NCBI GenBank assembly: GCA_947646735.1
Contig: CANTFK010000962.1
Span: 146,219-210,218 of the forward strand
Length of the DNA stretch: 64,000 bases
Source of the DNA: Peronospora farinosa
Lineage: Eukaryota > Oomycota > Peronosporomycetes > Peronosporales > Peronosporaceae
Direction of reading: 5' to 3'
The notes below the pieces were generated by a model. It was not told the DNA's origin and made no database searches. It saw nothing but the letters and a program-made list of their open reading frames with translations. The translations under genes were made by a program, and so were the position numbers. Below are positions 5,786 to 62,759 of the stretch, piece by piece; within the stretch, counting starts at the first letter, position 1; the number at the start of each line of letters is the position of its first letter.

Positions 5786-5789
5786 ATAC

Positions 5790-9209: not shown

Positions 9210-9210
9210 C

Positions 9211-11346: not shown

Positions 11347-12586
11347 GCTGTCCCCTGCGCGCTGGTCTTCCGAACTGCGGCAAGACACCGTGCATCCTTG
11401 TCCTGTCTCCTCGACATATAAGTAGGTGCCCATGTGCTTGACGATCATCCGTATTCACCAACTCACCAACCCTTTTTTTCACCAGTGGACTCTTTCAATT
11501 CTTTCTCTCGCACTTCTCCACATACGCCTGTCCCTGTTGACTGGAAACCCTGTCCCCGGTTACTCTAATCCCTGTCCCCGGGTACTGGAAACCCTGTCCC
11601 GGTTACTGGAAACCCTGTCCCCGGGTACTGGAAACCCTGTCCCGGTTACTGGAAACCCTGTCCCCGGTAGCTGGTATCCCTGTCCCTGGTAGCTGGTATC
11701 CCTGTCCCTGGTAATGGAAATCCTGTCCCCGGTGCCTTGTCCCCCGTAACTGGTATCCTGTCCCTGATGACCCTCATTTGAATCTTGGAACCTTGCAAGG
11801 CCTGGATTATTTCCCCTTTTATTGTGATATCCTCAGGGACCCCGACTTTTTTCTGGCACTTCTCCACAGCTGTCCCCTGCGCTCTGGTCTTCCGAACTGC
11901 GTTAAGATCCCGTGCATCCTTGTCTTGCTCCCTTGGAAAAGTAGTAAGTGTCCATGTATTTGATGGCCAGACGTTTTTACCAACTCACAATCGTGTTCTT
12001 TGCCCGTGACATCCCTCAATTCTTTCTTCGACGGGCCCCTAGATTGGCGGATTCCGCCAGAAAACCTAAATCTGGTCTTCTTCCAAAATTGTTGGTGTCT
12101 ACTGGTAATTAAAGTCCGATCCTCCTTCAAGTCGGTATTGTCTACTGGGAAACCACCTATTTCTGATTTTCCTCGAGAGTCGGAGGGGTCTTCTGGACAG
12201 TTCAAGCCGGGTCTTTCTCTAAAATCAGCGGGGTCTACTAGAAAACCCAAGTCTGGTCCTCCTTCAAATTTCCGGGGTCCTTTAGGAAAGCTGTTCAAGT
12301 AATCGCGTTCGTGGGAACAGCGGCCGGTGTCTAGATATCCTGTCTCCTCTTCGGTATAATGTCTGTTTTGTCAACCTGGTGGAGATCCATGATGCCTACA
12401 TAGACGCATCATACCAGAGCCTGCGGGAGGACCGGCACCGTCTTCCCTTTTCCGTGGCTCTTCGCGCCAGCAGTACGTACATCTCTCGGCTTTATGACGC
12501 AGAAAAAAAAGCGGAGGACTAAGGCGACGAAGGCTTGGATGAGGGTGCTGAAGAAAGTCTTGCAAGGGATGGTGGCAAGTGGACTA
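11347..12586 (+). pseudogene. Decayed antisense accessory gene, internal 3
   Basis: Nearly identical to internal 2, including the deletion after GGTGGCAAGTGGAC. It supports a recent duplication of one LTR-internal unit. Non-coding remnant. Confidence 0.7.
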
Positions 12587-12587
12587 C

Positions 12588-13114
12588 TTCACACTTATTA
12601 CTCTGCTGCACTTCTCGAATACATAACTTGACCAATTTTTGTGCATACAACAATTCCACCTCCATCTTGCATCATCTTGGCTTTCCCAAAATGAACTCTC
12701 CCCTGTACTCCTCGTGATTCTGCATTGCTTCAAATCGATTTCGTTTCTTCTTCTTGTTCTTGGACACTGTAGGATCTTGAGTGGTACGTTGGGAGACTCT
12801 ACTGTTTTCTTAGCTTTCACTGTCAAACTTGGGACCCCTGGACCATAATGTTTAACATGGCCCACGTTGTCTTCTTCAGAGAAGACATAAGGGGGGAGGA
12901 TTTTTGGCTTTTCTTCATATTCCACCTTGACCTCAATAGCAGAGCTCCTCCCCGGGCTCTGCAGGTCCTCCGATCCTTCTTCCTTCTTGATCACTGGCGA
13001 TCCGGTTTCCAGTGTCTTGGTTGTCCCTTGGTCTATTTTGACCGATGTCTTTTCTTTTTCGTAGGGCTCACGGTGAAATCCCGCGTCTCCCGAAGATTCG
13101 GGCACGCGCACCAT
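12588..13114 (-). pseudogene. Gag N-terminus fused to pol tail, internal 3
   Basis: ATG at 13114-13112 next to LTR4. Same fusion near 12743. It differs from internal 2 at a few positions, for example the codon after MVRVP. Confidence 0.8.
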
Positions 13115-14803
13115 TGTGGTGGAGTGGATTCTCAAACAACGTAGGAGATCCACAAACACACACAGCGCCGGACTGCCGACTTACGGAGGGGGTACCCCGA
13201 TACCGTGTCGTGTTAGCCTTGGGTCTCACCTTGTGTACCCGTCGGCTTGGCTGGTCTTGCTCCTCGGTTGACGCAGAAGACCTATAGACTTGGTCTTATA
13301 TAGAGGGACTTGGTGGTCCCCGAGTGGATATGCTTCACTCGGGACCGGGTTTCTTGTGCTCAATCGACTGTGTCGAGAGCAATGCACCTGGTACTACGTA
13401 CCCCTTTGGTGTCTGACTGTTCTTGGACCCCTTTGTGTTCTTCCCCGTAGGAAAACCGCTTCCTATAGCGGGTCTTGAATGGGTACGAACCCACAGGCCA
13501 AAATACTTCCTGGGGTTCGTTCGAGCTTGAATCTTACCAAACGACTGTCTTCAACGGGGGGGGGGGGGGGGGGCAAACAAATCCCTTCCTCGGAACAGGT
13601 GGGTAGATCGAAACAAGTTCGCACTTGAGTCTTGACACCTCAGGCCAACTATCCTGAGGTTCAACTTGCGTAGCTTGAGCCGTCACCTCACCTGACGTCG
13701 GTGGGCCAAAGGGTATCCCGCCCGGAAGAGGTGAGGTAACGGAGAAGCTTGGAAGGGGCGCTTAAAGCTGCCACGTGTAATGCAAATTCGAGTGTGTTTA
13801 TTTATCTTATTATCTGTATGATTTTCTTGCCTAACCCTAACCCTTTGCTCTGGATGGTACCACGTGTCAACTTGTGGACGAACAACAGGCTCTTTTGGGA
13901 CATGGGTCTTGTACCGGCTCTGCACTTTAAAAAAGCCTTGTACCTTCTATTCCCTGGGGTCCACTGGTCACCTGGGTCCACCGGTCACCTGGGTCCACCG
14001 GTCACCTGATGTCCACCTGTCACCTGGGGTACACCTGTCACCTGGGGTACACCTGTCACCTGATGTCCACCGGTCACCTGATGTCCACCTGTCACCTGGG
14101 GTCCACCGGTCACCTGATGTCCACCTGTCACCTGGGGTCCTTCTGTCGCCTGGGGTCCACCTGTCGCCTGGGGTCCACTGGTCGCCTGGGTCCACTGGTC
14201 GCCTGGGGTCCACCTGTCGCCTGGGGTCCACCTGTTGTCTGGGGTCCACCTGTTGTCTGGGTCCACCTGTAGCCTGGGGTCCACTGGTCGCCTGGGGTCC
14301 ACCTGCCGCCTGGGGTCCACCTGTCGCCTGGGGTCTACCTGTGGCCTGGAGTCCACCTCCACCGGTCAGCTGAGTCCACCGGTCACCTGGGTTCACTGGT
14401 CACCTGGGTCCACCTGTAGCCTGGGGTCCACTGGTCGCCTGGGGTCCACCTGTCGCCTGGGGTCCACCTGTCGCCTGGGGTCCACCGGTCACCTGGGTCC
14501 ACCAGTCACCTGGGTTCACCAGTCACCTGGGGTCCACCTGTCACCTGGGGTCAACCGGTCACCTTGGGTCAATTGGTCACCTTGGGTCAATTGGTCACCT
14601 GGGGTCAACCTAAGCTGCCCTAGCGGCACTGGACCTTCGGGCTGTAGTGTAGGGAAACCTGGTACCTTCTACGAACTCGGGACCTTGGACTAGTTCGGGC
14701 CCTGGTCACTCCTTTTCACTCATTCATGAGAGTGACCGAGATCATTCACGCCAGTTATTATAATAACTACGAAGGGTCTCCATTTCTCTGGCACTTCTAC
14801 ACA
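13115..14803 (-). repeat. Family-B LTR4 (1689 bp)
   Basis: Plus-strand order TGTGGTGGAGTGG...TTCTACACA. It has the longest G run of the array (18 G, 13556-13573) and a minisatellite with GTCACCTGATGTCCACC variants (about 13955-14607). Shared between internals 3 and 4. Confidence 0.9.
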
Positions 14804-16395
14804 GCTGTCCCCTGCGCGCTGGTCTTCCGAACTGCGGCAAGACACCGTGCATCCTTGTCCTGTCTCCTCGACATATAAGTAGGTGCCCATGTGCTTGACG
14901 ATCATCCGTATTCACCAACTCACCAACCCTTTTTTTCACCAGTGGACTCTTTCAATTCTTTCTCTCGCACTTCTCCACATACGCCTGTCCCTGTTGACTG
15001 GAAACCCTGTCCCCGGTTACTCTAATCCCTGTCCCCGGGTACTGGAAACCCTGTCCCGGTTACTGGAAACCCTGTCCCCGGGTACTGGAAACCCTGTCCC
15101 GGTTACTGGAAACCCTGTCCCCGGTAGCTGGTATCCCTGTCCCTGGTAGCTGGTATCCCTGTCCCTGGTAATGGAAATCCTGTCCCCGGTGCCCTGTCCC
15201 CCGTAACTGGTATCCTGTCCCTGATGACCCTCATTTGAATCTTGGAACCTTGCAAGGCCTGGATTATTTCCCCTTTTATTGTGATATCCTCAGGGACCCC
15301 GACTTTTTTCTGGCACTTCTCCACAGCTGTCCCCTGCGCTCTGGTCTTCCGAACTGCGTTAAGATCCCGTGCATCCTTGTCTTGCTCCCTTGGAAAAGTA
15401 GTAAGTGTCCATGTATTTGATGGCCAGACGTTTTTACCAACTCACAATCGTGTTCTTTGCCCGTGACATCCCTCAATTCTTTCTTCGACGGGCCCCTAGA
15501 TTGGCGGATTCCGCCAGAAAACCTAAATCTGGTCTTCTTCCAAAATTGTTGGTGTCTACTGGTAATTAAAGTCCGATCCTCCTTCAAGTCGGTATTGTCT
15601 ACTGGGAAACCACCTATTTCTGATTTTCCTCGAGAGTCGGAGGGGTCTTCTGGACAGTTCAAGCCGGGTCTTTCTCTAAAATCAGCGGGGTCTACTAGAA
15701 AACCCAAGTCTGGTCCTCCTTCAAATTTCCGGGGTCCTTTAGGAAAGCTGTTCAAGTAATCGCGTTCGTGGGAACAGCGGCCGGTGTCTAGATATCCTGT
15801 CTCCTCTTCGGTATAATGTCTGTTTTGTCAACCTGGTGGAGATCCATGATGCCTACATAGACGCATCATACCAGAGCCTGCGGGAGGACCGACACCGTCT
15901 TCCCTTTTCCGTGGCTCTTCGCGCCAGCAGTACGTACATCTCTCGGCTTTATGACGCAGAAAAAAAGCGGAGGACTAAGGCGACGAAGGCTTGGATGAGG
16001 GTGCTGAAGAAAGTCTTGCAAGGGATGGTGGCAAGTGGACATCCTGCTGGACCCCTTCTTCCAGTCGGTTACTCCCACACGTCAGCTGTCGTTCTGGTAC
16101 TAACCGGGTCAACCAGAGGGAATTCTCAAGCGGGTCTGTTCGACGTGTTGCAGGTAGTGGATGACGTAGCTTCTATCGCATCTCGTATCACAAGAACATC
16201 CAAGAGCATCCCGCCTTCGGAGTTCCCCGCCTCCATGGTAAGTTCTCTGCCCGACAGCGCCTGAGGGTCATTACCAGCTTTGAGGGTATCCATCATAAGC
16301 TGATAATGCCATTTCATCTCGAAATCCCTAGCACATTCTCGATCTTCCTCCTTGATGCCATATCTTAGGTGGACCCTCGGGGTCCTCTGCAGGTT
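14804..16395 (+). pseudogene. Decayed antisense accessory gene, internal 4
   Basis: Leader and intron as in the other units, type-C repeat (about 14998-15326), second leader, linker repeat (about 15464-15759) and the longest surviving C-terminal domain of the array. That domain (15836-16264) is open for 142 codons and starts EIHDAYIDASYQSL, RLYDAEKKRRTKATK, AWMRVLKKVLQGM. It diverges in frame after about 16040. Homologous to residues 574-736 of the intact protein. Non-functional. Confidence 0.75.
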
Positions 16396-19744: not shown

Positions 19745-21090
19745 ACGACTGTCCCATGCGCGCTGGTCTTTCGAACTGCGGAAACACCCTGTGCATCCTT
19801 GCTATGCTCCCATGTCAGAGTAGTAGATGTCCATGTATATGATGGCCAGTCGTATTCGCCAACTCACAAACCATTTCTTTGCCATTGCCATCCCCCAATT
19901 CCTTCCCCGACGGGCCCCGAGATCGACGGGGACCACCAGAAAACCTAGATCTCTTCCTTCTCCAAGTTGTCGAGGTCTACTGAAAAACCACCCAATTCGG
20001 ATTTTTCTTGAGAGCCACAGGGAATCCCAAGTCTGGTCCTTCTCGAAATTGGCGGGTTATACTGAGAAAATCAAGTCTGGTCCTCCTCGAAATTGGCGGG
20101 GTCTACTAGGAAACTCAAGTGTGGTCCTCCTCCAACATCGGCGGGGCCTACTGAGAAACCTGAGTCCAGCCCGATCATTACAACCCAAAAATTTCCTGTT
20201 GCTACCCCCAAAAAGAAGAATTCGCATACGCTTCGCGTGGATCTCTGAATTCAGCTTTTTTGGCCACTTCGAGTCCGACACCGAAAGTCCAAACTCCAAT
20301 GATCCAAGGGTTCCAGAGTCTAAGGTCCTGCTGGTTCCAACGCGTGGGGCTCATCTATTCCTGGATATGCAAAGTCAAGTGTGTTTAGAGCTGAAGACAT
20401 TGCCTCATGGCCAGTTTCTATAATTAATCCCCTGCGATAACACGATTAAGCGTGCAGGACCTATGGTCCAACGTGACCCTTCCGGACTCGTGGTCGGTCT
20501 TTAGACCATCTACGGACAAAGCCATTAGATGAGAATGTGAATCTTTTAACGAAATTTCAACGTAAGCACTTGATGGACTCGTGTCCATGGGACCAGTTGA
20601 TTGTGTCCGTGGGTCCTCTCTCCTTCCCAATGTCCGGTTGGTTCGTCGACCTGGGGAAAATCCGCGGCGCATATGTCAACGCGTCATGACATAGCTTGTG
20701 GAAAGATCGGCACCATCTCCCTCTTTCCGTGGCCCTTCGCATGAAGAGCCAACCGGCTCTTCATTGCCAGAAAAAGCGGCGGATTAGGGCGAGAAAGGCT
20801 TGGATGGGGGTGCTGAAGAAGGTCTTATAAAGGGATAATGGCAGGTCACTGTGACCTTGACATCTTGCTGGACCCCTTCTTCCATCCGGTTAATCCCATA
20901 CGTCAGCTGTCCTTCTATCCCGCGTGTCAACGAGGGTAATTTTCAAGAGAGGCTGTTGGAGGCGTTGCGGGTGTGGATGATTCTGGCCCCTGGCGCATCT
21001 TTTATTACAAGAACATCAAGAGCACCCCACCTTCGGGTTTTCACGTCCTTCTGGTATGTTTTTTCTACCTGAAAGCATCTGAGGCTCGTA
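19745..21090 (+). pseudogene. Old decayed antisense accessory gene
   Basis: Diverged relative of the gene at 33188-35461. The leader has a 63-nt intron-like segment (19823-19885, GTAG...AT). The repeat linker (19960-20200, units like KSGPPRNWRGLLG) remains partly open. The C-terminal domain is recognisable from about 20600 to 21070: GHCDLDILLDPFF at 20849-20890, with frameshifts and stops around it. Followed at 21090-21340 by the pol-tail non-coding region. Confidence 0.65.
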
Positions 21091-32033: not shown

Positions 32034-33113
32034 TGTGGTGGAGTGGATTCTCAAACAACGTAGGTGGTCCACAAACACACACAGCGCCGGACTGCCGACT
32101 TACGGAGGCGGTACCCCGATACCGTGTCGTATTGGCCTTGGGTCTCACCTTGTGTACCCGTCGTCTTGGCTGGTCTTGCTCCTCGGTTGACGCAGAAGAC
32201 TTAAAGCCTTGGTCTTTGTATAGGACTTGGACTTGGTGGTCCCCGAGTGGATATGCTTCACTTGGGACCGGGTTTCTTGTGCTCAATCGACTTAGTCGAG
32301 AGCGATGAATTTAAAATTTTTATAAAATGTATAAATTATTAATTATATTTAATATAAGTTTATTTTATCTATGCACCTGGTACTATGTACCCCTTTGGTG
32401 GCTGACTGTTCTTGGTCCTTGGACCCCTTTGTGTTCTTCCCCGTAGGGAAACCGCTTCCTGTAGCGGGTCGTAGAGTGTTGACACTTACTTGACACCTCA
32501 GGCCAACTATCCTGAGGTTCAACTTGCGTTGCTTGAGCCGTCTAACACCTGCTGGACGTCGGGGGGCCAAAGAGTATCCCGCCCGGAAGAGGTGAAGCGA
32601 CGGAGAAGCTTAGGGGGGGCGCTTAAAGCTGCCACGTGTAATGCAAATTCGAGTGTGTTTATTTACCTTATACTTTGTATGCTTCTTCTTGCCTAACCCT
32701 AACCCTTTGATCTGGATGGTGCCACGTGTCGACTCTTGGAGGAAGAACTGGCTTCTTGGTACCTGTACTTTCTGTAATCTTCGATATTCTGTGTACCGAT
32801 TCTGCACCCTCGGACATTAGGCCCCTGGGCCCCTGTACCCCTGGGCTCTTGTACCCCTGGGCCCCTGTACCCCTGGGTCCCTGGGCCCCTGGGCCTCTGG
32901 GTTCCTGGGTCCCCGGAACCTGTTTCCGGGACCTGGGGCCTGTGCTGACTCCGCACGTATGGGTCCTTATATTCTTAATACTGCGGAGCCTGGTGTGTGG
33001 TTGTAAATCCGCGAGACCGGGTCGTGGTCACTCCCTCGGGGAAGTGACCAGAAGTTCTTTTGCTCTTCGTTCCATCTCCCTTAAACTCCAACTTTCCTTG
33101 GCACTTCACCACA
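32034..33113 (-). repeat. B2 3' LTR (1080 bp)
   Basis: Element sense TGTGGTGAAGTGCC (33113) to CCACTCCACCACA (32034). Minisatellite of CCCCTGGGCCCCTGTACC units at about 32820-32930. Contains an AT-rich insertion of about 60 bp near 32308-32370 that the other B LTRs lack. Compared with the 5' LTR it is close to identical outside the minisatellite and that insertion. Confidence 0.9.
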
Positions 33114-33187: not shown

Positions 33188-35461
33188 AGTAAGTGATCCT
33201 ACGTCGCTTGGGTGGTTGCGTTCACCAACTCACACGTCTTGTATCTGTTAGTGACTTCTCGTTATCTTTCCACCGGGTCTCAAGCACCTGACCGTTGGTC
33301 TTTTTCAGCACCTCCTGGACCTGACCCTGACGAGGTCGCCCCGACCGTGGACCTTATTGGGGAGCCCCCCATTTATCTGGAGGTCTCTCAAGCTTGGGAA
33401 GTTTTACGTGGAGCGGTGGAGCGGGCCCAGGCCATGGAGACCCTCGCTGAGGAACACAGAGTCCTCCAACGGGCCTACCAGATGAAACATCGCCGGACCG
33501 CGGAATTACAGCGTCGCGTAGATGACCTCACGGAATTCGAGGTGACCCATGCGCCCCGGATACAGTCTTGGGTCCGGAATCTGGTCCACGAGCATGAAGC
33601 GGACCAGCTGGCCATCGCCGAGTACCGGGATGCACTCGCCCAACGGGTGGACAATTCTCGGGAAGTGGAAGAATCCCGATCCCAGATCAAGTACTGGAAG
33701 GACCAGTACAACGAGGCTGTCGCAACTTCTTCGGCTGAGATTCGGTCGCTGGAGTCCAAGTTGGACGCACTTCGCAGTCCTCAAGAACTGTCCAAGCAAG
33801 TGTTGGTACTCCAGAAGGAGGTGGCCAACTACAAGAGCCGCGTGAAGACCCTCCTCCGGGAACGTGACCAGCTGCAGAAGCAGCTAACGGTTGCTCGAGG
33901 CATGGCGGCAAAATCGAACCCAGCCACGACCAAAGCCCGAAGTTCCAGAACGACGAAAAGGTCACGTTCGCCTTCATCCAAGGCTCGGTCGCCCCTTAAG
34001 CCGAAGAAGCGAAAAATCAATAGTGCCCCGGGGTCATCTGAGGCCGAGGATAGCAGTAGCGACGACTCGATGTTCGCCGCCATGGCCAGGTCGCGGGCTT
34101 CCAGTCGTCGCTCCGGCCCTGTACCCTCTACGTCAGAGGTCGGCCCCGAGGTCATAGACCTATCGACTAAGGCCAAGTCCAAAGTTCCCACTCCACCTTC
34201 AAGGCCCCCATCCCCTCGCACTTCCCACGCAGCGCCTCGGGCGTCAAAGAACAAGAAAGCTCGAACGACGTACTCCGACGAGTTCTTGGAGATGTTTGGA
34301 CCAGACTCTGAAACTGAGAGTGACGAGTCTAGCCATGCTAAGCGTAAGCCACCAGCCAAAAGTTCCCGCCGCAAGGGCCCCGCCGGCAAGGGTCCAGTAC
34401 CGCCCAAGGGTTCCAGCGGCAAGGGTCCAGTACCACCCAAGGGTTCCAACGGCAAGAGTTCTGCACCACCATCCAAGGGTTCCAGCGGCAAAGGTCCAGC
34501 ACCATCCTCCAAGGGTTCCAGCGGCAAGGGTCCAGTACCACCCAAGGGTTCCAACGGCAAGAGTTCTGCACCACCATCCAAGGGTTCCAGCGGCAAGGGT
34601 CCAGCACCATCCTCCAAGGATTTCAGCCGCAAGGGTCTGGTACCAACACCTGAGGGTCCTGCCAGCCAGGGTCCCACTCATGATGCTTTCCCCGACCGTA
34701 ACATCCACGGCTCTTACCTTCCTGGTTATGCGACACCCAGCACGTTCGCCGCGGAAGATGTTGCCCCCTGGTCGATTTCCCAGGTAAGGGCCCTCGTTAT
34801 CACCCAGCTGACGCCAGAGGATCTTTGGTCCAAGGTATCGCTTCCACTATCTTGGGTGGGTGCTTCTGAAAACCAGAAGCCCCAAAGTCCTCCAATCTGG
34901 AGCGAAGCCCTCATGAAGGACTCTCTACTTCAACTTCTGATGGACTCCTGTCCTTGGGCCCAGGGGGTCGTGACCGTAACCCCTATTTCTTTTCCAGTGT
35001 CCGGCTGGTTCAGTGACCTCGTGAAGCTCCATGATACGTACGTCGATGCGTCACGCCAGAGTCTATGGGAAGACCGAAACCGACTTCCTCTTTTCTCCGA
35101 GCTCCGTACAAAGAGCCAATACGCCTCTCGGCTGTCCAATGCGAGGAAGAAACGGCGGGCCAAGGCGGTGAGGGCTTGGATGGACATACTTGAGAAGGTC
35201 CTGGAAGGGATGAAGGCCGGTCACTGTGACCTCGACATTTTTCTTGACCCCTATTTCCAGCCCATGATCCCGAACCGTCAGCTGACCGTCTGGTACCCAA
35301 TCGTCACCACGGAGGATCCTCAGTTGGACTTGTTGAGGGCTTTGCATACCGCAGACGACACTGACCCCTGGCGCGTGTTCTATCGCAAGAACATTAAGGA
35401 ACACCCCGCCTTCCAGGTCCCTCGTCTCTCCGGCAAATTTCGCCCGGCCACCGATGCATAA
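33188..35461 (+). CDS. Antisense accessory protein, intact (family B)
   Basis: Transcribed opposite to B2, tail-to-tail with pol (gap 35462-35776). Removal of a 63-nt GTAAGT...TTAG intron (33189-33251) joins A (33188) to TG (33252-33253), giving the start codon and a protein of 736 aa. Without splicing the first in-frame ATG is 33434, which would lose 61 residues that are conserved in the copy at 62760. Residues about 40-225 are heptad-like, coiled-coil sequence. About 235-260 is basic with KPKKRK (likely nuclear signal), followed by an acidic Ser cluster (SSSDDS), AAMARSRASSRR and EVIDLS at about 299-304 (SUMO-interaction-like). About 377-463 is a GKGPVPPKGSS repeat. 574-736 is a conserved domain (PISFPVSGWF, GHCDLDIFLDPYF, WYP). 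Family unknown to me. Role inferred only: nuclear or chromatin-related helper or regulator. Confidence 0.8.
33189..33251 (+). other. 63-nt intron splitting the accessory start codon, B2
   Basis: GTAAGT donor, CTGTTAG acceptor, and a TTCACCAACTCAC segment near the 3' end shared with all other copies. The leader from 33114 to 33188 has no ATG. The same position and length recur at 62697-62759. Confidence 0.75.
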
Positions 35462-35776: not shown

Positions 35777-38700
35777 CTACTCTTCATGACTCTGCATTGC
35801 CTCGAATCGGTTTCGAGTAGCCTGCCTGCGCTCATAGTCCCTAAGCAATCCCCCGCAGTTGAGGTCCACCTCATTCACCCATGACGGGTCAGGATATCCT
35901 TTCCATTGTACCAGGTATTCACACTGGATCCGTCTGTACCGAGTTTTCCTTCCCATACGTCTGTCTGTCTATAATCTTCTCCACTTCGTATTCATCCTCT
36001 TCCAGTTCCGCGACCCAATTGTCTTCTGGCAATAGAGCTTCATCAAAATCCACCCGGTTCGCTTCGCCTACCACCAACACCGTATCTGGTCTATCCGGGT
36101 ATTGCCGGACCAGCTTCAATTTTGACACGTGTACCAACGGGTATATACGGTAGTCTGTTCCATCTAAACGAGCGGCATAGTCACCTACCAATTCTCTCAC
36201 TCGGAACGGCCCGTGCCATAGATGTGCCAGCTTTCGAGCATACCCCTATTTGACCCGGTCCAAGTATAACCAGACATGGGAACCCACCTCAATATGACCA
36301 TCAACCACCTCCTCATTGTGAGCCTAGGCCCGACCTTCCATCGCAGATCGTAATAATTTGTTGGCTTGTTCCCTCGCTCTGCGATACTGACGTTGTACGC
36401 TATATCGCCATCGACGGGGCTCACATTCACGCCGCTTCGTGCTGCCTAACGGTATGGTGGCTTCTAGAGTACTTCGGGAATCCCAGCCATGTACCAAGAA
36501 AAATGGAATTTCCTTTCGGATCCGGTCCTGGGCCGTATTCAACGCGAAAGTGAGCCTTTCTGCATAGGCATCCCAGTCCTTCTGATCTACCTCGGACACA
36601 TACATTTTGATGGACCGTGTAATGGTCTGTACCATTCTCTCTGCTGTGCCATTGGCCTGTGGTCGATACGCCATAGTCGCCCGCTGTTTCTGCCCAATTA
36701 TGCGGTTGAAAGCACGAAAGAAATCTGACATGAAACTGGGTTCTCTGTCGTGACGGATCGCCTCACTGGCCCCAAACCGACGGAATACGCACTCTTCGTA
36801 ACCTTCTGCCACGGTTTGGGCCGACCTCGACGAACTAGCCTTGGCAATCACATATCCCGTAAACAGGTCCACCCAAATCAACAGCTCGGTATTACCCTTG
36901 AGCGATTTGGGCAAAGATGGGATGTGGTCTATCGCGATAACTTGGAACGGGCGGGTAGCTTGAATGTTCCCTGGACTTCTCCCCCGTAAGGTGGGACCAC
37001 CTTTGAAAGTCTCGCAGTCTACGCAAGTGCCAACATAGCGCTGAACACTCCGGAATAAGCCTTTCCAATAGAAATGTTTCCGGATACGTTGGTATGTACG
37101 GCCAATTCCCTGGTGTCCCCCTTCTAGACTTGTATGGTAGTGGTGTAGAAAGTCTTGTTGTAGATTTTCGGGTATAACTAGCCGAATCAACCCATCACGG
37201 TCCTCGTCTACTGTTCCCTGGTAAGGGCAGTACAGAAGAAGATCGTCATCATCCAAAGCGTAGTTCATCTCAATCTTTCCACACGTAAATGCCACCTCGG
37301 CCGATAGACTACCCCAGTTTTTCCGTAGGTAAATCTTCAAATCACGTATCCACATCTCTTCATCTTGGGCTGCTGCAATTCGTTCGATCCTTATCCGTTG
37401 CACCACTTCCTCTTGCACGACTTCCGTCGGTATTCTGGATAGAGCCCGGGATCTCGTAACCGCTGTAACTCGCAATGCATGGCTTTGGTCCTTGGGTATT
37501 AACAGCTCAGGTAGACGGTTGATTGCTTCAAGGTCCTTGAACTCTTCTTCCGGCACTATATCGACACCCTGTTGCTGGTGCAAAGCCACGTTAGCAAGTC
37601 GGTCTGCACTTTGGTTCCATTCGCGCTTCATGCGTAGAAACTCGTGAACGGGCCAGGACCTGAGTTTTTCCAGGGCCTTCGCCCGTCGTACTGTCAGGCC
37701 CTGCGCCTTACACTCGATTTCTCCTCGCATCTGTCGCACGACCAGGTTAGAATCTCCACACACTACTAGACGTCTACGCTCCAGGTTCTCCAGTAGAAGG
37801 AAGCCCAACAATAGGCCTTCATACTCTGCCTCATTTACTGTCGCTTCAGTCAAATACCGGGAAGCAGCGGCGACTACCGTCCATTCCGGGAGTTGCCACG
37901 CAATAGCACTGCAGGCTCCTCCCCCACGCTTAACTCGTGCAGACCCATCGAAACTGACCACGTACAAGACTTCCTCAGGTTCGACTGTAGGAGGAACCAC
38001 CGTGATAGCTTGGCGCGGGTGTTTCTTGGGGGCGATTGAAGATAGAATAGAGTCCACATTTTCGCGAGGCGTAATGCTTGCCGCTAATGTCCCCAGTATT
38101 TCATCTTCGCCCTTCTTGCACTTAACCACTTCTAACGTCCATTGAGACAGGAGTGCAGCCCAGTTTCCCAGGCGACCTTGTAGACCCGGTGACCGGACTA
38201 TCCACGCCAGCGTTGAGTGTCGGGTCAAGACCTTGATAGGTCGGGTGACCAGTGACGTGTAGCAAAGGTCTAGTATTCGCAATAACGCCAGCACTTCCTT
38301 GTCCACCAGCCCATAGTTGATCTCGTTTGGCTTCAAAGTCCGACTCGTGAAAGCTACCGGCATATACACCCCTTCATATTCCTGCACCAAGGATGCCGAG
38401 ATGGCCCACTCGCTAGCATAGACAATAATGACGGGTTCCCGGTCTGGATCAAAATGGCGGAGGATTGGGGCAGTGGCGATCTTATTCTTTAACATAGCAA
38501 ATGCTACCTGCACCCGGGCCCATCGGTCCTCCTCCTGGTCATCTCCCTGTATGTCCCCAGTCCTGCTTATCCGGTTTCGTAATACGTGGTAATCCACTTC
38601 CCTTAGTTCGTACAGGATGGATGCATAAATCGCGTAGTCCTCCAGGAACCGACTGTAATAGTTAAGACTCCCGAGAAACGACTGCATAGCTTTCAGGGTA

Positions 38701-40076
38701 GTGGGCAACGGTAAGTCCACCAAGGACTGAAGGTCCTTGGGGTGGGCCTCCATCCCTTCCGCTGATACTTGGTGGCCAAGGTAATCTACCTTTTGACAGC
38801 CCCATGAGCTCTTAACCGCGCTGATCGATAAGTTCCACTTGTCACACACCTCCAAAAGTCGTTCCACTTTCACGCATAAGTCATCCCATGACTCCGAGGT
38901 CACCAAAATGTCGTCGATATAGGACCTACGTCCTAATATAGACTTCTTGAGGTCTCCCTCTGGATGGCCCACCTCGAACAGGTCCTCTGGTTTGTCAGAG
39001 CCCGGCTCTGAGGAAATCGTAAGAAACCCATATAACGCATTATCCAACAGCCGCTGATAGATCTGCGGCGCATTCTTCAGTCCAAACGGCATTCGTCTCC
39101 ACTCAAAAAGTCCGAGCGGGGTTACAAACGCCGAGATTAAACGGGCTCGTTCGGTCATACTGACCACCCAAAAACCGCTAGCCATATCCAGTGAGCAGTA
39201 TCACAGGGCCTTATCTAGGTCTTCCAACAACTCATTCACGAGAGGCATGGGATACACCATAAGCCGCGTTAAATCATTCACCATCCGGTAGTCAATGCAC
39301 AGCCTTATATCCACCCCATTCTTCTTGACAATAATTACAATTGGACTGGCCCATGGGGAGGTGGAATGCTGGATTATCTTGGATGACAAGAGGCCTTTTA
39401 TCAGGTCTGCCAGCTTCTCCCTAAATTGAGGGGCCACCTTCCGTACCCGTTGGGCGATTGGCCGTGCGTTCCCAACATCAATATCGCACACTGCTCCTCG
39501 AGCCGCCGGGGGTAATGCGTTACCTTTTCCCATCAGCAAATGTCGTTTTCTCCATATAATCTGACGGAGGCGGTCTACCTCCTCCTTTGGGGTATCCCCG
39601 GGGTCTGAGATCTGGATGTCTTCCAACATAACTTCGTTCGTGGATGGGGTGACCTCAGGAATAACAGACCAATTTTTGTCGATATCCTCGGCACATAAAT
39701 CTCCACTCTCGTGAACACAGACCTGGTCATCAGGAGTATCTACTTCAGCCTTGATCTTTGGTGGACCCCCCTCTAGGTGGACCCTCTCCATATCGATCCT
39801 ATCCATAGATGAGACTTCCGTGCCCACACTAGCTCCAGTTGGTTGACCTCCATCGAGGGCCTCCCCTCCAGACTCCTGATCTGATGGTAATGACTCAGGG
39901 TCCCTCATAACAGACTCGTGCACCACGTTAACCACCGGCACTTGGGTCCCCGTCCGTAGCAACATCTTCTTTGGAGTTGTGTACTGAGGTTTCTCGACCA
40001 TCGGACCTTGGTATACTTATTCTTGAGTAGTTTATGCATCCTCCTCGTCAGTGGTTGCTTGGTAGGCTAGATTTTT
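35777..40076 (-). pseudogene. pol: B2 pol: RT, RNase H, integrase, chromodomain, with stops
   Basis: Same frame throughout as the protease at 41030-40077 until about 35935. RT has LDMASGFWVV and YIDD (SYIDDILVTS); RNase H has SFDGSAR, NEAEYEG, CGDSNLVVRQ and NQSADRLA; integrase has the HHCC finger (about 37145-37015), IAIDHIPSLP, RHDREPSF and NGTAERMVQ (DD35E); then HGPFRVREL and a chromodomain (EVEKIID...VQWKGYPDPSWV). In-frame stops: TGA 40079-40077, TAA 40034-40032, TAA 40019-40017, TGA 39203-39201 (Trp in A1), TAG 36326-36324 and TAG 36248-36246. A one-base frameshift lies in the chromodomain (about 35935); pol ends TAG at 35779-35777. The first and third stops also occur in B1. Otherwise very well preserved. 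Confidence 0.9.
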
Positions 40077-43504: not shown

Positions 43505-44598
43505 TGTGGTGGAGTGGATTCTCAAACAACGTGAGAGAACCACAAACACACACAGCGCCGGACTGCCGACTTACGGAGGGGGTACCCCGATACCGTGTCG
43601 CGTCAACCTTGGGTCTCACCTTGTGTACCCGTCGGCTTGGCTGGTTTTGCTCCTCGGTTGACGCAGAAGACTTAAAGACTTGGTCTTTGTATAGGACTTG
43701 GACTTGGTGGTCCCCGAGTGGATATACTTCACTTGGGACCGGATTTCTTGGCCTCAATCGACTTAGTCGAGAGCGATGCACCTGGTACTATGTACCCCTT
43801 TGGTGGCTGACTGTTCTTGGTCCTTGGACCCCTTTGTGTTCTTCCCCGTAGGGAAACCGCTTCCTGTAGCGGGTCGTAGAGTGTTGACACTTACTTGACA
43901 CCTCAGGCCAACTATCCTGAGGTTCAACTTGCGTTGCTTGAGCCGTCTAACACCTGCTGGACGTCGGGGGGCCAAAGGGTATCCCTCCCGGAAGAGGTGA
44001 AGCGACGGAGAAGCTTAGGGGGGGCGCTTAAAGCTGCCACGTGTAATGCAAATTCGAGTGTGTTTATTTACCTTATACTTTGTATGCTTCTTCTTGCCTA
44101 ACCCTAACCCTTTGATCTGGATGGTGCCACGTGTCGACTCTTGGAGGAAGAACTGGCTTCTTGGTACCTGTACTTTCTGTAATCTTCGATATTCTGTGTA
44201 CCGATTCTGCACCCTCGGACATTAGGCCCCTGGGCCCCTGTACCCCTGGGCCCCTGTACCCCTGTACCCCTGGGCCTCTAAGCCCCTGGGCCTCTGGGCC
44301 TCTGGGCCTCTGGGCCCTTGTACCCCTGGGCCCCTGTACCCCTGGGCCCCTGTACCCCTGGGCTCTTGTACCCCTGGGCCCCTGGGCTCCTGGGTCCCCG
44401 GAACCTGTTTCCGGGACCTGGGGCCTGCGCTGACTCCGCACGTATGGGTCCTTATATTCTTAATACTGCGGAGCCTTGTGTGTGGTTGTAAATCCGCGAG
44501 GCCGGGTCGTGGTCACTCCCCCGGGGAAGTGACCAGAAGTTCTCTTGCTCTTCGTTCCATCTCCCTTAAACTCCAACTTTCCCTGGCACTTCACCATA
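43505..44598 (-). repeat. B2 5' LTR (1094 bp)
   Basis: Element sense starts TATGGTGAAGTGCC (one change from TGTGG) and ends CCACTCCACCACA at 43505. The CCTGGGCCCCTGTACC minisatellite (about 44225-44400) differs in unit order from the 3' LTR. Confidence 0.9.
43565..43636 (-). promoter_or_regulatory. Leader stem with palindromic loop, B2
   Basis: Outer stem GCCGAC/GTCGGC encloses an inner hairpin whose loop contains the perfect palindrome GGGGTACCCC (43579-43588). See also 28073-28144 and 48314-48380. A dimerisation or packaging role is inferred. Confidence 0.6.
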
Positions 44599-44602
44599 TC
44601 TG

Positions 44603-52561: not shown

Positions 52562-55500
52562 ATGAAGCCTGAAGACTCGATGTATTATCACGAGAGTGGT
52601 GAATTGTATGCCGAATATGTGGATCAGCATATGGCTGTCTTGCCTGAGATTGTGTCATCCACCGAAGAAGTTACGATTGATGATATCCAAGTGGGCGATC
52701 CGGGAGTTCCTTTAACCAAGGACCAAGAAGGTTTACGGCAATTGATTTGGGCGAACCGACACTTACTCATCGGCAAAGGAAACGCGCTTCCTCCTGCAGC
52801 TCGAGGAGCAGTATGTGATATCGATGTTGGCGGAGCACACCCGATCGCACAGCGAGTACGACCGGTCGCTCCCAAATTTCGCGAGAAGTTAGCTGACTTG
52901 ATCAAAGGATTACTATCAGCCAGGATTATCCAGCCGTCGACATCACCATGGGCTTCGCCGATTGTGGTAATCATAAAAAAGAATGGTGTTGACATTCGGT
53001 TATGCATTGACTATCGGCGGGTGAATCAGCTCACGAGATTGATGGTGTATCCTATGCCGCTGATTAGCGAGTTATTGCAAGATATGGATAAGGCTATGTG
53101 GTATTGTTCGTTGGATATGGCCAGTGGATTTTGGGTCGTGGAAATGACCGAGCGAGCAAGGATGATTTCTGCTTTTATCACGCCGTCAGGCCTGTTCGAG
53201 TGGTTACGAATGCCGTTTGGGCTAAAAAACGCTCCGCAGATTTACCAACGTCTAATTGATAATGCACTATATGGATACCTCAAGATCGGTACGGATCCAA
53301 ACGCAATTGCCACAGGATCACTCGACTCCGCTGATACGGTAACGGGATCGCCAAAGCTGGTTGATGTATTCACAGAAGGCAAACCGGATACTAGCCAGAA
53401 GCCATCTGTGCTTGGCCGAAGGTCATATATTGATGACATACTAATTCCAGCAACATCGTGGGCCTCCTTATATGATAAGGTAAAGCGATTGTTAGAAGTA
53501 TGCAACGAATGGAATTTGTCGATCAGTCTCGCTAAAAGTTTTTGGGGACGACGTAAGGTGGACTACCTGGGTCATCAAGTCTCACTGGCAGGAATCGAAG
53601 CTAATCCAAAGGATTTGGGATCGCTGGTGAATATTCCGTTCCCAAAAACGTTGCGATCGATGCAATCGTTTCTGGGAAGCTTGAATTACTATAGTCGATT
53701 TGTCGAAGACTTTGCGATTTATGCGTCAGTGCTATATGAATTAAGGGAAGCAGATTTCCATGAAATCCGCTGTTCTGACAAGATGAATGCATTGGATTCG
53801 ACTGTCGCAACCAGGAATGATTCAGATCAAAAGTTCGATATTGGGGACGATCCAGATCCAGAAGGACGGACTCGATGGGAAAAAGCGATGATCGCATTTA
53901 CCATGTTGAAAGCCAAGATCGCTAATACCCCGATCCTCAGACACTTCGATCCAGATCGGCCTCCGGTAATTGTCGTATATGCGAGTAAATGGGCCGTTTC
54001 AGCAGCTTTATTGCAGGAGTATGATGGTATATATTGGCCAGTTACTTTTACAAGCCGAACGCTGAAGCCTAATGAAATCAATTACGGAATGGTCGAGAAG
54101 GAGATACTAGCATTACTTCGGATTTTGGATATATGTTATTGCATGCTAGTCTCGCGAGAGATTAAAGTTCTTACGCGTTTCTCGACGATGGCCTGGTTGG
54201 TGCAATCCTCCGGTCTCAATGGCAGGCTAGGTAGGTGGGCCGCATTATTATCGACTTGGACTTTGGAGATCAAGAAATGTGAAAAGGGCGAAGATGAAAT
54301 GCTTGGTGCCCTGGCTGCAAGTGTGACTCCCCGTGAAGAAGTCGACGAAGTGTTGATTGCGATCGCTCCCCGGAAACAGCCAAGGCAAACTCTAAGTATG
54401 CCACCGCCTACGGTGGAAGAAGATGAAAGTCTCTTAGTCGTCAGTTTCGATGGATCGGCACGAACCAAGCGAAAGGGTGGATCATACAGTGCGATAATAT
54501 GGAAACTTCCTGAGTGGACTATTGTGGCTGCTGCATCGGAATATGCAACGGACTTAACAGTGAACGAAGCCGAATATCGGGGTTTACTATTAGGCTTTGA
54601 TCTGTTGGAGAATCAAACTAGGGGACGCGTTATTATTTGTGGCGACTCCAACCTAGTGATTCGACAGATGCGGGGTGAAATCGATTGCAAGGCTCCTGGA
54701 CTGCAGTTGTTGCGACAGAAAGCAATGGAGAAGCTTCGATCATGGCCGATCCATGAGTTCTTACACATGAAACGCGACTGGAACCAAAGTGCAGATCGAC
54801 TGGCGAGTACTGCTTTACAGAAGGAACAAGGTGTGGTCATCACTTCGGAAGGAGATCGCCAAGATCTCATTACTCTTAATAGACTGGATGAGTTGTTGAA
54901 GTCGAAGCAGACCGAATCGGTGGTTAAAGTGGCTGCGATTACCAGAGCAACCCGGAGAAGACGTCAACCACCCGAGATCTTGCAAGAAGAATTTGTGCAG
55001 CAAATGCGAAGTGAACGTATACGACAAGCTCAAGATGAGGAATGTTGGATCGCTAACCTAAAGATTTTTCTGATTGGTGATATAGCGAATCTCAGTATGG
55101 AAGAAGCGAAGTCATGCGCCAAGATTGCAAGTGATTATGAGGTGGATGAAAGCGATATTCTATATTTTTGCCCGGGAGCTGTGAAAAATTCGGACGATCT
55201 CGATGGAATTGCTCGTTTGGTGGTGCCAGAAACTCTTCAGCAAGATTTTCTACACCACTACCATGCCAGTTTGGAAGGAGGGCACCAGGGAATCGGTAGG
55301 ACGTATCAACGGATCCGATCTCGTTTTCATTGGAGAGGCCTGTATCGCAGTGTACAACGATATGTGAGCGAATGCACTGACTGCGAGACTGGAAAAGGAC
55401 GTCCGGTTATTAATGGAGAGTCTCCGGGAAATTTACAAGCTACTTATCCGTTCCAGATTATTGCCATGGATCATATTCCGTCGCTGCCTAGATCTTTCAA

Positions 55501-56635
55501 AGGCAACACTGAATTATTGATCTGGGTCGATCTCTTTTCGGGCTATGTGGTTGCCAAGGCGAGCAAATCTAGAACAGCTCAGACGATCGCCGAGAATTAC
55601 GAGGAGTGTATCTTTCGACGATTCGGTGCGAGTGAAGCGATACGGCACGATCGAGAGCCCGGGTTTATGTCGGATTTTTTTCGTGCGTTCAATCGACTTA
55701 TTGGGCAAAAGCAAAGGGCAACGATGGCATATCGCCCTCAAGCGAATGGAACTGCGGAACGTATGGTGCAAACTCTGACTCGTGCATTAAAGATGTATGT
55801 CTCTGACGTTAATCAACAAGACTGGGATGAGTATGCCGAACGTCTAACTTTCGCAATCAATACCGCTCAAGATCGGGTGCGCGGCGAAACGCCATTTTTC
55901 TTGATTCATGGTTGGGACCCGAGATCTACGTTGGAAGCTACGTTACCATTAGGAAGTACTAGGCGTCGAGATCGCGATCCACGTAGGTGGCGATATCATA
56001 TGCAGCGGCATTATCAGCGGGCGAGAGAAGCAGTAAATGAGAGACTCAGGACTGCGATCCAAACACGTGCTGATCGCCACAATGAAGATCTCAAGCCTCA
56101 CGAAATTGAGCCGGGGGCGCAAGTCTGGTTATATTTGGATCGTGTGAAAGAAGGGTACGCTCGAAAGCTAGCACATATGTGGCATGGACCTTTTCGAGTA
56201 AAAGAAATGTGTGGAGATCACGCTGTCCGACTGGAGATTGCTGGTACGCCATATCGATTATTTCCCGTCGTACATATATCCAAGTTGAAGAAAGTAAAGA
56301 CGTTCTCCGATCGTCCAAAAAATTTGCTGACGATCGAAGAAGAATATCGATTCGATTTTGATGAAGCGCTTTTGCCAGAAGACAGTTTTGAAGGTAATCT
56401 GGGAGACGATGAATTCGAAGTGGAAAAGATTGTGGATGTACGATCTGATAGAAAGACACGTTTTGGACGAGTACATAGACAGTTTAAAGTCTACTGGAAA
56501 GGTTATGCTAAACCATCCTGGGTGGATGAAGCTGACTTAAGTTGTGGTGCCTTATTGCGAGATTTTGAACGTGGTGAGATTAGCCGTAATCGTTTTGAAG
56601 TGATGCAATCACATGAAGAGGGATCTGGTGGCTAA
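52562..56635 (+). CDS. pol: A1 Pol: RT, RNase H, integrase, chromodomain (1357 aa)
   Basis: RT: first Asp in LDMASGFW (D185), second motif YIDD (289-292). RNase H: D630 (SFDGSAR), E671 (NEAEYRG), D695 (CGDSNLV), D745 (SADRLAS). Integrase: HHCC finger, H near 898-908 and C938/C941 (CTDC), then D970 (AMDHIPSLP), D1030 (RHDREPGF) and E1066 (NGTAERMVQ), with exactly 35 residues between the last two. A WHGPFRVKEM/SKLKK module follows, then a chromodomain at about 1284-1340 (EVEKIVDV, YWKGYAKPSW). The chromodomain would direct integration to marked chromatin. All expected catalytic residues are present, so the domain set appears functional. In the element it would be made as a Gag-Pol fusion; the ATG is only the frame's first Met. 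Confidence 0.95.
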   Translation: MKPEDSMYYHESGELYAEYVDQHMAVLPEIVSSTEEVTIDDIQVGDPGVPLTKDQEGLRQLIWANRHLLIGKGNALPPAARGAVCDIDVGGAHPIAQRVRPVAPKFREKLADLIKGLLSARIIQPSTSPWASPIVVIIKKNGVDIRLCIDYRRVNQLTRLMVYPMPLISELLQDMDKAMWYCSLDMASGFWVVEMTERARMISAFITPSGLFEWLRMPFGLKNAPQIYQRLIDNALYGYLKIGTDPNAIATGSLDSADTVTGSPKLVDVFTEGKPDTSQKPSVLGRRSYIDDILIPATSWASLYDKVKRLLEVCNEWNLSISLAKSFWGRRKVDYLGHQVSLAGIEANPKDLGSLVNIPFPKTLRSMQSFLGSLNYYSRFVEDFAIYASVLYELREADFHEIRCSDKMNALDSTVATRNDSDQKFDIGDDPDPEGRTRWEKAMIAFTMLKAKIANTPILRHFDPDRPPVIVVYASKWAVSAALLQEYDGIYWPVTFTSRTLKPNEINYGMVEKEILALLRILDICYCMLVSREIKVLTRFSTMAWLVQSSGLNGRLGRWAALLSTWTLEIKKCEKGEDEMLGALAASVTPREEVDEVLIAIAPRKQPRQTLSMPPPTVEEDESLLVVSFDGSARTKRKGGSYSAIIWKLPEWTIVAAASEYATDLTVNEAEYRGLLLGFDLLENQTRGRVIICGDSNLVIRQMRGEIDCKAPGLQLLRQKAMEKLRSWPIHEFLHMKRDWNQSADRLASTALQKEQGVVITSEGDRQDLITLNRLDELLKSKQTESVVKVAAITRATRRRRQPPEILQEEFVQQMRSERIRQAQDEECWIANLKIFLIGDIANLSMEEAKSCAKIASDYEVDESDILYFCPGAVKNSDDLDGIARLVVPETLQQDFLHHYHASLEGGHQGIGRTYQRIRSRFHWRGLYRSVQRYVSECTDCETGKGRPVINGESPGNLQATYPFQIIAMDHIPSLPRSFKGNTELLIWVDLFSGYVVAKASKSRTAQTIAENYEECIFRRFGASEAIRHDREPGFMSDFFRAFNRLIGQKQRATMAYRPQANGTAERMVQTLTRALKMYVSDVNQQDWDEYAERLTFAINTAQDRVRGETPFFLIHGWDPRSTLEATLPLGSTRRRDRDPRRWRYHMQRHYQRAREAVNERLRTAIQTRADRHNEDLKPHEIEPGAQVWLYLDRVKEGYARKLAHMWHGPFRVKEMCGDHAVRLEIAGTPYRLFPVVHISKLKKVKTFSDRPKNLLTIEEEYRFDFDEALLPEDSFEGNLGDDEFEVEKIVDVRSDRKTRFGRVHRQFKVYWKGYAKPSWVDEADLSCGALLRDFERGEISRNRFEVMQSHEEGSGG

Positions 56636-56836: not shown

Positions 56837-59196
56837 TCACGATTGCTGTTTGGGAAAGAATTTACTGGATAAACGGGCGAGAGATGAACCGGTGTGATCC
56901 GCGATAGAGGATCGATTTTGGTTCCGCCAAGGCTCCGCAGAATCCAATAACGACAGTGCAGTAATCAGGTTGGGAATGTTTTTCTGCTTGCAATTCAAAC
57001 CAGGATACCATGGTCGCACTTCTGCGTACACTGGAAAGTGGAGGAAGTATGGATCCAACAAAATGTCCAGATCACAGTGTCCTTCAATCATCCCTTGGAG
57101 AATAACGCGAAGAATAGTCTTCCAGCGGGGCCCAGATCTCGACCGACGCTGCTTGCGTTGCTGACAAAATTGCGCCAGCTCTGGATACTCCTTCCGATGT
57201 TCGCGGGAGATATACAGGAAGTGGGTTGCCTCCCACAAGGCTTGCCTATGGCGATCTTCATATTCCAGGTAAATGTCCGCCAGATCTTTGAACCAACCGG
57301 TCAGAGGGAAAGAGATGGGAGAAATCGGCCGACGAGTGACGTTCCATGGTTTCTGATCGTAAAGCGCAGTAACTTGTGCCGGGGTGATCAGTCGGGGAAT
57401 CCACTCAGAATCAAGAAGAGATTTGGGATTGGCTTGAGGGGTGAAGATATACCCTCTCTGTCGGGACAAGTGTCGATAGAAGAACTCCACTCCCAATTCG
57501 GCAACACTGGTCAGACTGACCCGTCGGGCGGACCATGGAGCGACCTGAGTTGACGATCGGGGCTTTCGCTCACGATATCCTGGGATCCACGCATCACGTG
57601 ATTTTTGGAGATCAGGCAGGTCGGCGTATTGAGCAACTGGTTTATATCTTCACGAATGTCACTGGAAACGCTAATCTTCCCGTCCAAGTCGCTAGAAGGT
57701 TCGCCAAAAAGGTCGACCTTGAAAATCTTGGTCGTAAGGCTAGGGGGCGTATCAGGACTCGAGACTGGTGATTTTTTGGAGGGTGGGCTACCATTGTGAA
57801 TTATGATAAGGGACTGAGACGATCCGATGTTGCCAGAGAGTTTCGTCGTGGTGTTGCGACGCCTCGCGGTTGAACGCGATCCGGATAGAGCAGCAAGTGT
57901 AGCGTCCTCGGGATCGGAAGACCAGCCGTCATACTCAGAGTCAGGCGAAGGCGAGGGACACGTTTTGCGTTTCTTTTTAGCTTTCGACGAAACATTGGGT
58001 CGCGTTGTAATAACGGATCGCACCGACTTGGCAGACCGTTCTGAGGTACCAGATCGCGTCGAAGTCCCAGATCGCGCCGAAGTACCAGATCGCGCCAAAG
58101 TATTAGACTGTGCCGAAGTACCGGATTGTGCCGGAATTTCAGATCGCGTCGAAGTCCCAGATCGCGCTGGAATGCCAGATCCCTCCGAGGTCGCAGATTG
58201 AGCAGAAGTACCGAAAGCGCTGCGGGGACGTTTACAGGGGACGTCCAGAGTCGGTGAAGATGACGCACGTTTGCGATTGGGTGACGAGGGATTGGAAAGC
58301 GCGAGAAGGCTAGTCGGAGAAGGAAGTAAGCCCGTAGCCAATTCTGCCAGATGCGAACGAAGTAAATCTCGATCCTGGATGGCCAGATCGCGCTCTGCCT
58401 CTCGATCTGCAACTTCGGTACGAAGTCGATCCAAAGCTGCGTCGTTCCGAATACTCGTACTCAGGAGGCGATCATGATCAAGCTCGAGCGCGCTCAGTGT
58501 CTCTTGCAGTTGTTTCGCGGCTTGCTGGGCTTGAGAACGAGCTTTCTTGTACTTGGATGCCTTGCTTTTCATGCGTCGAAAGTCAGCGGCCAAAGCACTG
58601 TCTGCTGTATTATGCTGTGCGAGGATGGAGTCTAGTTGCTGTTGGAGGGAAGCGATCTGCTGCCGGAATTTTCCTTCCAGAGTTCGCTGAAGATTGGCCG
58701 CCTCACGGCGGAATTTATCCTGCAGGCGATGTTTCTCTGCATTGGCTCGAAACAAGGCATTCTTCAGATCGGCGATCTCCTGAGACTGATCCGTTAGCTG
58801 GTTCAGTTCTTCGTCGAGACCTTCGGCCATGTGGAGAGCGGCATCAAGTTGTTGACGCAACTCTTCATCTCGACGCAAGACGAATGTGCACAGTCGAGGC
58901 ACCAACTCGTGATACGAGTTGAGTTCCGTCTCCAGCTGATTTCCACGAAATTCCTGCTCCTGCAAGGCATTTTCCATGGAGTGATAGCTTTCCACGATGG
59001 TATCCTGGGCTTCCAGGCGGTCATACAATGAAGAAACCAACGAGATCGCGTTTTGACGATCCGCAACGGGAGGAAGGATTATCCGGGTAGACGGGAGCAA
59101 GATACGCGATCCGGTAGAGGAATTCATCGTTTGATCGCGCGTAACGAGCACACCAGTTTGGGGGTGGCGATCGTTTTCGGGTGTAGATCTGGCCAT
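56837..59196 (-). CDS. Antisense accessory protein of A1, one frame switch
   Basis: Opposite to pol, between pol and the 3' LTR, as in B2. Start chosen at ATG 59196-59194 (MARSTPEND), close to the LTR; an ATG further on (MNSSTGS) is possible. Residues about 45-290 are a long coiled coil. A basic Ser-rich linker follows with GTSARS/GTSTRS repeats (about 57990-58200), KKKRK and DATLAALSGSRSTARRR, which matches AAMARSRASSRR of B2. The first frame is open to 57511. The homologous C-terminal domain (PISFPLTGWF, GHCDLDILLDPYF, WYP) is in another frame ending at 56837. The frames can be joined near 57620-57660, so there is either one indel or a small intron. Function unknown; coiled-coil, nuclear-type composition. 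Confidence 0.75.
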
Positions 59197-59266: not shown

Positions 59267-59278
59267 GCAGGGGACGAT
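59267..59278 (+). other. Purine tract, A1
   Basis: GCAGGGGACGAT immediately before the 3' LTR; the core GCAGGGGAC is identical to that of family B. Confidence 0.75.
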
Positions 59279-62696: not shown

Positions 62697-62759
62697 GTAG
62701 GTGTTCATGTGCTTGACGATCCTCCGTATTCACCAACTTACCCACCCTTTATTCACCAG
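62697..62759 (+). other. 63-nt intron splitting the accessory start codon, right copy
   Basis: GTAGGT donor, TTCACCAG acceptor, and ATTCACCAACTTACCC near the 3' end. Same length and position as 33189-33251. Confidence 0.7.

What the first reader, a model, noticed from the sequence alone, without database searches (positions are those of the whole stretch)
33188..35461. Antisense accessory gene conserved between pol and 3' LTR in two diverged Gypsy families
Seen: B2 (33188-35461) and A1 (59196-56837) both carry, in the same place and always antisense to pol, a gene for a long coiled coil, a basic Ser-rich linker with an AAMARSRASxRR-like motif, and a C-terminal domain with PISFP..GWF, GHCDLDI.LDPYF and WYP. 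Six further decayed copies (four in 4-17 kb, one at 19.7-21.1 kb, one at 62.6 kb) keep the position. Known: extra or antisense ORFs occur in some plant Ty3/Gypsy lineages. I do not recognise this protein family. Inference: a nuclear helper or regulator of the element, possibly of host origin.
Basis: partly seen in the sequence, partly recalled or inferred. Interest (0 to 1): 0.92.

Follow-up and report, generated by a model that had tools for sequence, protein, structure and literature searches.

The report
Backward accessory gene in oomycete retrotransposons
Many copies of a jumping element in one oomycete genome carry an extra protein gene written backwards behind their main genes; selection has kept the protein, which matched no family that could be searched and looks like a nuclear helper of the element.

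Summary
The antisense gene is real and protein-coding. In B2 it is one open frame (33197-35461 +, first ATG 33434; the stated start 33188 lies before an in-frame stop). In A1 one frame break splits it, but open relatives of 912-973 codons exist. The host is an oomycete (22 elicitin matches). Rows from capped searches merge to 186 loci; 123 of them have a listed pol within 3 kb, and in all 123 pol lies downstream on the other strand. Six sequence types share a ~245-aa C-terminal domain (44 invariant columns in 9 sequences), two linker motifs and a heptad-periodic stretch. dN/dS of the best unsaturated pair is 0.36 (domain 0.22; intervals below 1); the newest copies sit near 1. Pfam, PDB and viral contigs gave no relative; other eukaryotes could not be searched. 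The carriers resemble Chronos Ty3/Gypsy (two RNase H domains, chromodomain). Antisense accessory genes are known in plant Retand/Grande and fungal Boty elements: a new variant of a known kind. Most likely an oligomeric nuclear accessory protein translated from an antisense mRNA; transcription and localisation are inferred. Some copies lost the domain and still spread; others exchanged the gene by recombination.

The parts
33197..35461 (+). B2 antisense accessory gene, open frame including stop; first in-frame ATG 33434
33407..33952 (+). B2 heptad-periodic stretch, approximate (residues 71-252 of the open frame)
   Evidence: best windows p 0.005-0.01 against 200 shuffles
33998..34015 (+). B2 basic cluster KPKKRK, nuclear-signal-like
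   Evidence: that it is a signal is inference
34058..34111 (+). B2 linker motif SDDSMFAAMARSRASSRR
   Evidence: counterparts in all six proteins checked
34664..35458 (+). B2 C-terminal domain (piece used for alignments)
32034..33113 (-). B2 3' LTR; its U3 edge CACCACA faces the gene
43505..44598 (-). B2 5' LTR
   Evidence: edge by comparison with the 3' LTR and A1
35780..39734 (-). B2 pol region, broken (two stops and a frame change); chromodomain piece 35780-35968
57511..59196 (-). A1 antisense accessory gene, N-terminal part from ATG 59196
56837..57625 (-). A1 antisense accessory gene, C-terminal part in another frame
52562..56635 (+). A1 pol: RT, RT_RNaseH, RVT_3, integrase, chromodomain
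59278..60474 (+). A1 3' LTR (5' LTR 47190-48443)
5184..16248 (+). Four decayed copies of the C-terminal domain (5184-5634, 8911-9200, 12288-12577, 15745-16248) in tandem units without pol
20087..21076 (+). Decayed copy with stops and frame changes
62717..63989 (+). N-terminal part of a B'-like copy, running to the window end

Best explanation
It is an accessory protein gene of Chronos-like Ty3/Gypsy retrotransposons, placed antisense between pol and the 3' LTR. Shown: position, conservation across sequence types, and long-term selection on the protein. Inferred: a separate mRNA starts in or just inside the 3' LTR and runs tail-to-tail towards pol; the protein oligomerises through its heptad stretch, enters the nucleus through its basic clusters, and its C-terminal domain acts there in trans on the element's own DNA or protein complexes, either tuning LTR transcription (as HTLV-1 HBZ is reported to do) or assisting the pre-integration complex and its chromodomain integrase. 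I put transcription control slightly ahead.
For: Position: 123 of 123 loci with a listed pol within 3 kb are tail-to-tail. Conservation: 44 invariant columns in nine sequences of six types; two linker motifs and heptad periodicity in six of six proteins checked. Selection: dN/dS 0.355 (CI 0.28-0.46) for L049-L050, 0.334 (0.19-0.61) for L052-L053, 0.284 (0.21-0.36) for L003-L047. Many open copies: ten A-type loci L023-L032 with frames of 912-954 codons. Basic clusters in six of six proteins. No membrane-like segment. Analogues: Grande gene23 is nuclear with its own promoter (PMC7264820); HBZ (PMC3185765).
Against: No transcript or promoter evidence. In B the first ATG lies 320-323 bases inside the LTR edge although similarity to B' begins earlier, so its start is unexplained. 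Copies without the C-terminal domain have spread. Of 247 listed pol loci only 121 have a listed copy within 1.5 kb, though both lists are capped. Within the B type the domain alone is not below dN/dS 1 (0.59-2.57, few changes), and near-identical A copies give about 1. The structure model failed (mean pLDDT 36.6).
Confidence: 0.6

Rival explanations
1. The antisense transcript itself is the agent: it pairs with genomic RNA, feeds small-RNA silencing and limits copy number; the protein is secondary.
For: Tail-to-tail layout makes overlapping transcripts likely. In Phytophthora infestans small RNAs map to both strands along Gypsy Pi-1a (PMC3522703, passages). The plant review allows both roles at once (PMC7264820).
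Against: Selection acts on the protein: dN/dS well below 1 with changes concentrated at third codon positions. The same passages report no obvious antisense bias of small RNAs.
Confidence: 0.15
2. It is a captured host gene still doing a host-like job for the element.
For: The protein matched nothing known, and capture is a recognised route to extra ORFs (PMC7264820).
Against: No stand-alone intact host gene was seen in this genome; it stands antisense in at least six element types. Other genomes could not be searched, and the 63 loci without a listed pol were not examined singly.
Confidence: 0.15
3. It is a structural or particle-associated helper, for example of gag assembly or RNA packaging, acting in the cytoplasm.
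For: Coiled-coil and basic Ser-rich regions would also suit RNA binding.
Against: Nuclear-signal-like clusters follow the heptad stretch; separate antisense expression does not suit a stoichiometric structural role (inference).
Confidence: 0.09
4. It is an env-like gene in reverse.
For: It has the place of env, between pol and the 3' LTR.
Against: Antisense orientation; the highest 19-residue hydropathy mean in eight proteins is 1.57, in the open leader before the likely ATG.
Confidence: 0.01

Closest known systems
Retand (Tat) elements of plants with antisense TRP28 ORF (PMC11963269)
   Same: Antisense ORF between pol and 3' LTR, kept in nearly all recent clusters (97%), often with tandem repeats in that region; nuclear or DNA-binding role proposed there
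   Different: Other protein: TRP28 (PF04195) was not among the matches here at E <= 1 or E <= 10 (C-terminal domain); plant, non-chromovirus lineage
Maize Grande gene23 (via PMC7264820)
   Same: Antisense, same place, nuclear, own promoter
   Different: Here promoter and location are not shown; sequences were not compared
Botrytis Boty-like elements with antisense gene brtn (via PMC8365987 passages and PMC7264820)
   Same: Antisense extra gene in a Gypsy element
   Different: Fungal; sequences were not compared
HTLV-1 HBZ (PMC3185765)
   Same: Antisense gene starting in the 3' LTR; coiled coil (bZIP); nuclear; represses sense transcription
   Different: No bZIP match here; no transcript known; retrovirus
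Chronos Ty3/Gypsy elements of oomycetes (PMC5348765)
   Same: Carrier elements: RNase H next to a second RNase-H-like domain, integrase, chromodomain, oomycete host
   Different: The paper's main text has no hit for 'antisense' or 'additional ORF'; its supplements were not seen

Membership tests
Chronos Ty3/Gypsy (carrier element) | Two RNase H domains between RT and integrase | tested here: met
   RT_RNaseH and RVT_3 in A1 and B2 pol; that RVT_3 is the archaeal-type one is recalled; other types not tested
Chronos Ty3/Gypsy (carrier element) | Chromodomain at the C-terminal end of pol | tested here: met
   Chromo above cut-off in A1, B2 piece, L003 (B), L047 (B'), L051 (A''), L052 (A'); below cut-off in L050 (C), E 0.028
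Chronos Ty3/Gypsy (carrier element) | Placement in the Chronos clade of the RT tree | not tested
   no reference RT sequences were compared
Retand TRP28 antisense ORF | TRP28 domain PF04195 | tested here: not met
   not among matches at E <= 1 or for nine C-terminal domains at E <= 10
Antisense additional ORF of LTR retrotransposons (descriptive class) | ORF between pol and 3' LTR, antisense, in most copies of a family | tested here: met
   position in 123 of 123 paired loci; 'most copies' only as lower bounds from capped lists
Antisense additional ORF of LTR retrotransposons (descriptive class) | Antisense transcription | not testable with these tools
   no RNA data
HBZ-like antisense bZIP | bZIP domain | tested here: not met
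   no Pfam bZIP match at E <= 1, though heptad periodicity is present

The most novel reading that the evidence does not exclude
LTR elements with a second RNase H have repeatedly and independently added an antisense nuclear regulator between pol and the 3' LTR: Tat/Retand in plants, Chronos-like elements in oomycetes, and deltaretroviruses with HBZ. The oomycete protein is a family of its own, exchanged between elements by recombination, with domain-less versions that persist as cheaters or competitors of the full-length protein.
Probability: 0.25. Interest if true: 0.82.

Novelty: new variant of a known kind. Interest (0 to 1): 0.62.

Why it matters
Antisense accessory genes are described in plant and fungal Gypsy elements without a known function. 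A protein under selection in another eukaryotic lineage, in elements already cited as convergent with plant Tat elements, gives a further case and a built-in comparison (copies with and without the C-terminal domain) for asking what such genes do. It would also change annotation: these frames can be mistaken for host genes of unknown function.

Tried and rejected
Stop-codon read-through in B-type pol: B hits showed a recurrent TAG; in L004, L047 and L048 it is the ordinary pol end, so rejected. Spliced first exon in B2: a GTAAGT lies near 33190 and a CAG near 33306, but L047 and L048 showed no such donor; not supported. Oomycete initiator motif: the pattern is recalled from memory and gave one hit each in L047 and L048 and none in the six other stretches; not used. 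Structure: an alignment of two window sequences gave mean pLDDT 36.6, so no fold search was made. Viral contigs: 21 pattern matches, none confirmed. PDB: none for the B2 protein at E 1; profile best E 0.52, ATP synthase delta, chance level. Pfam on nine domains: best E 0.038, DUF2810, one member, below cut-off or chance. Correlation of pol and gene identities (Spearman 0.76, 36 non-independent pairs) was not used as proof, because one search shows recombination. Adding decayed window copies to the structure alignment was dropped: they hold stops and frame changes.

Full report
What is there. B2 (sense on the minus strand, LTRs 32034-33113 and 43505-44598) and A1 (sense on the plus strand, LTRs 47190-48443 and 59278-60474) are LTR retrotransposons. 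Each carries, between pol and the 3' LTR and on the other strand, a frame for a long protein. In B2 it is open from 33197 to 35461, 754 codons before the stop, first ATG 33434. In A1 it starts with ATG 59196 and is cut by one frame break into two open frames. B2's pol is itself broken while its antisense frame is open.

The host. Elicitin PF00964 matches 22 places of the genome and none of the 14 control genomes, so the host is an oomycete (the family's restriction to oomycetes is recalled). The species was not determined.

Copy number and position. Searches with the B2 protein, the A1 pieces and a C-type domain found many copies; all lists are capped, so counts are lower bounds. The 150 rows and 40 of 87 rows merge to 186 loci. 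Rows of four pol searches merge to 247 pol loci. Of the 186, 123 have pol within 3 kb, and in all 123 it is downstream on the opposite strand; 63 have no listed pol within 3 kb and were not examined singly (a first count with two pol searches was 77 of 77). From the other side, 121 of 247 pol loci have the gene within 1.5 kb. A direct check of 55 fetched loci, some of which overlap each other, gave 43 tail-to-tail, 11 without pol in the short flank, and one (L026) whose only pol hit lies beyond the far side of the gene; that copy has its own pol, tail-to-tail.

The protein. The alignments show a C-terminal domain of about 245 residues with 44 invariant columns among nine sequences; three pairs among the nine are close relatives. 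Identity to B2 is 57% for B' and 30-34% for the A and C types. Upstream lie two short motifs found in all six proteins checked: an AAL..SRS..RR-like one and an [LM]FG one followed by acidic and Ser residues. Further upstream is a heptad-periodic stretch in all six (best of many windows, p 0-0.005 against 200 shuffles), with basic clusters nearby. The linker carries type-specific repeats (GKGP-like in B, ARSGT in A). No membrane-like segment was seen in eight proteins. No significant match was found in Pfam, PDB or viral contigs. The large protein database was switched off, so relatives in other eukaryotes were not sought.

Selection. For L049-L050 (C type, dS 0.23) dN/dS is 0.355 (CI 0.28-0.46), domain 0.215 (0.12-0.36). 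For L052-L053 it is 0.334 (0.19-0.61). L003 against L047 (B against B') gives 0.284 (0.21-0.36) and 0.192 in the domain, with dS of 1.6-1.8, near saturation. Among four B copies whole-gene values are 0.39-0.84; four of the six pairs were bootstrapped and have intervals below 1, but the domain alone does not differ from 1 (0.59-2.57, few changes). The B' pair gives 0.475 (0.19-1.01). Four pairs of near-identical A copies give 0.95-1.42 from 4-22 changes. So the protein is constrained over long times, while the newest copies look neutral, as expected after insertion (inference).

Loss and exchange. Four A-type loci without the C-terminal domain were fetched (L054-L057). They keep the N-terminal part; three share one new C-terminal peptide, the fourth has its own. 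Their pol genes are 98, 98, 89 and 90% identical to A1, so versions without the domain have spread: either it is dispensable in cis, or full-length copies supply it in trans. A and A' loci are 95-100% identical in DNA over pol, the gap and the last part of the accessory gene, but 56-72% over the rest of the domain: a recombination joint inside the gene. B and B' share LTR segments 91-95% identical (L047, L048) although the gene is 47-49% identical in protein. The gene therefore behaves as an exchangeable module.

Expression layout. The LTR edge is followed by a shared polypurine-tract complement (G[TC]CCCCTGC) in 13 of 17 loci scanned with one strict pattern. In A, A'' and C an in-frame ATG lies 46-85 bases inside; in B and B' the first is 305-323 bases in, and L012 and L052 gave none. 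A start in U3 or just inside the LTR is inferred from this; no promoter evidence was obtained.

Mechanism. The best reading is an oligomeric nuclear accessory protein made from an antisense mRNA. Analogues: Grande gene23 is nuclear and transcribed from a promoter upstream of it (PMC7264820, parts 1-2 of 3 read); HBZ starts in the HTLV-1 3' LTR, is nuclear and represses sense transcription (PMC3185765, abstract and section 2.1). The choice between transcription control and integration help is open.

Comparison with print. 97% of Retand clusters carry antisense TRP28 ORFs (PMC11963269: abstract, first part of the structure section, Discussion). Chronos elements have dual RNase H and a chromodomain (PMC5348765: abstract, sections 5 and 7, passages); the main text has no hit for 'antisense'. 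PMC10508981 (passages) has none either. Searches for an oomycete report of such a gene showed none among the listings I saw; the library lacks most subscription papers and Repbase. PMC8365987, PMC3522703 and PMC12477816 were seen as passages.

Verdict. A real, conserved antisense protein gene: a new variant of a known kind, whose protein matched no family in the libraries searched.

Noticed in passing
window 3262-18426: Four tandem ~3.4-3.8-kb units with LTR pieces, gag residues 1-118 and decayed accessory-gene remains but no pol: they look like an internally deleted, non-autonomous derivative in tandem.
   Followed up: partly
window 32791-32952, 35485-35654, 44196-44437: An array of 8-base G+C-rich repeats occurs in both B2 LTRs and again in the gap between the accessory-gene stop and pol.
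   Followed up: no
window 51105-52544: A1 has a 479-aa sense ORF between gag and pol with 30-base repeats and no Pfam match at E 0.1.
   Followed up: no
L034 against L052 and L053: A sharp identity change inside the accessory gene marks recombination between element types.
   Followed up: yes
window 27432-31752 and 44598-47225: Pieces of further B-type elements (LTR, gag, a pol fragment) surround B2 and A1, suggesting nested insertions.
   Followed up: no
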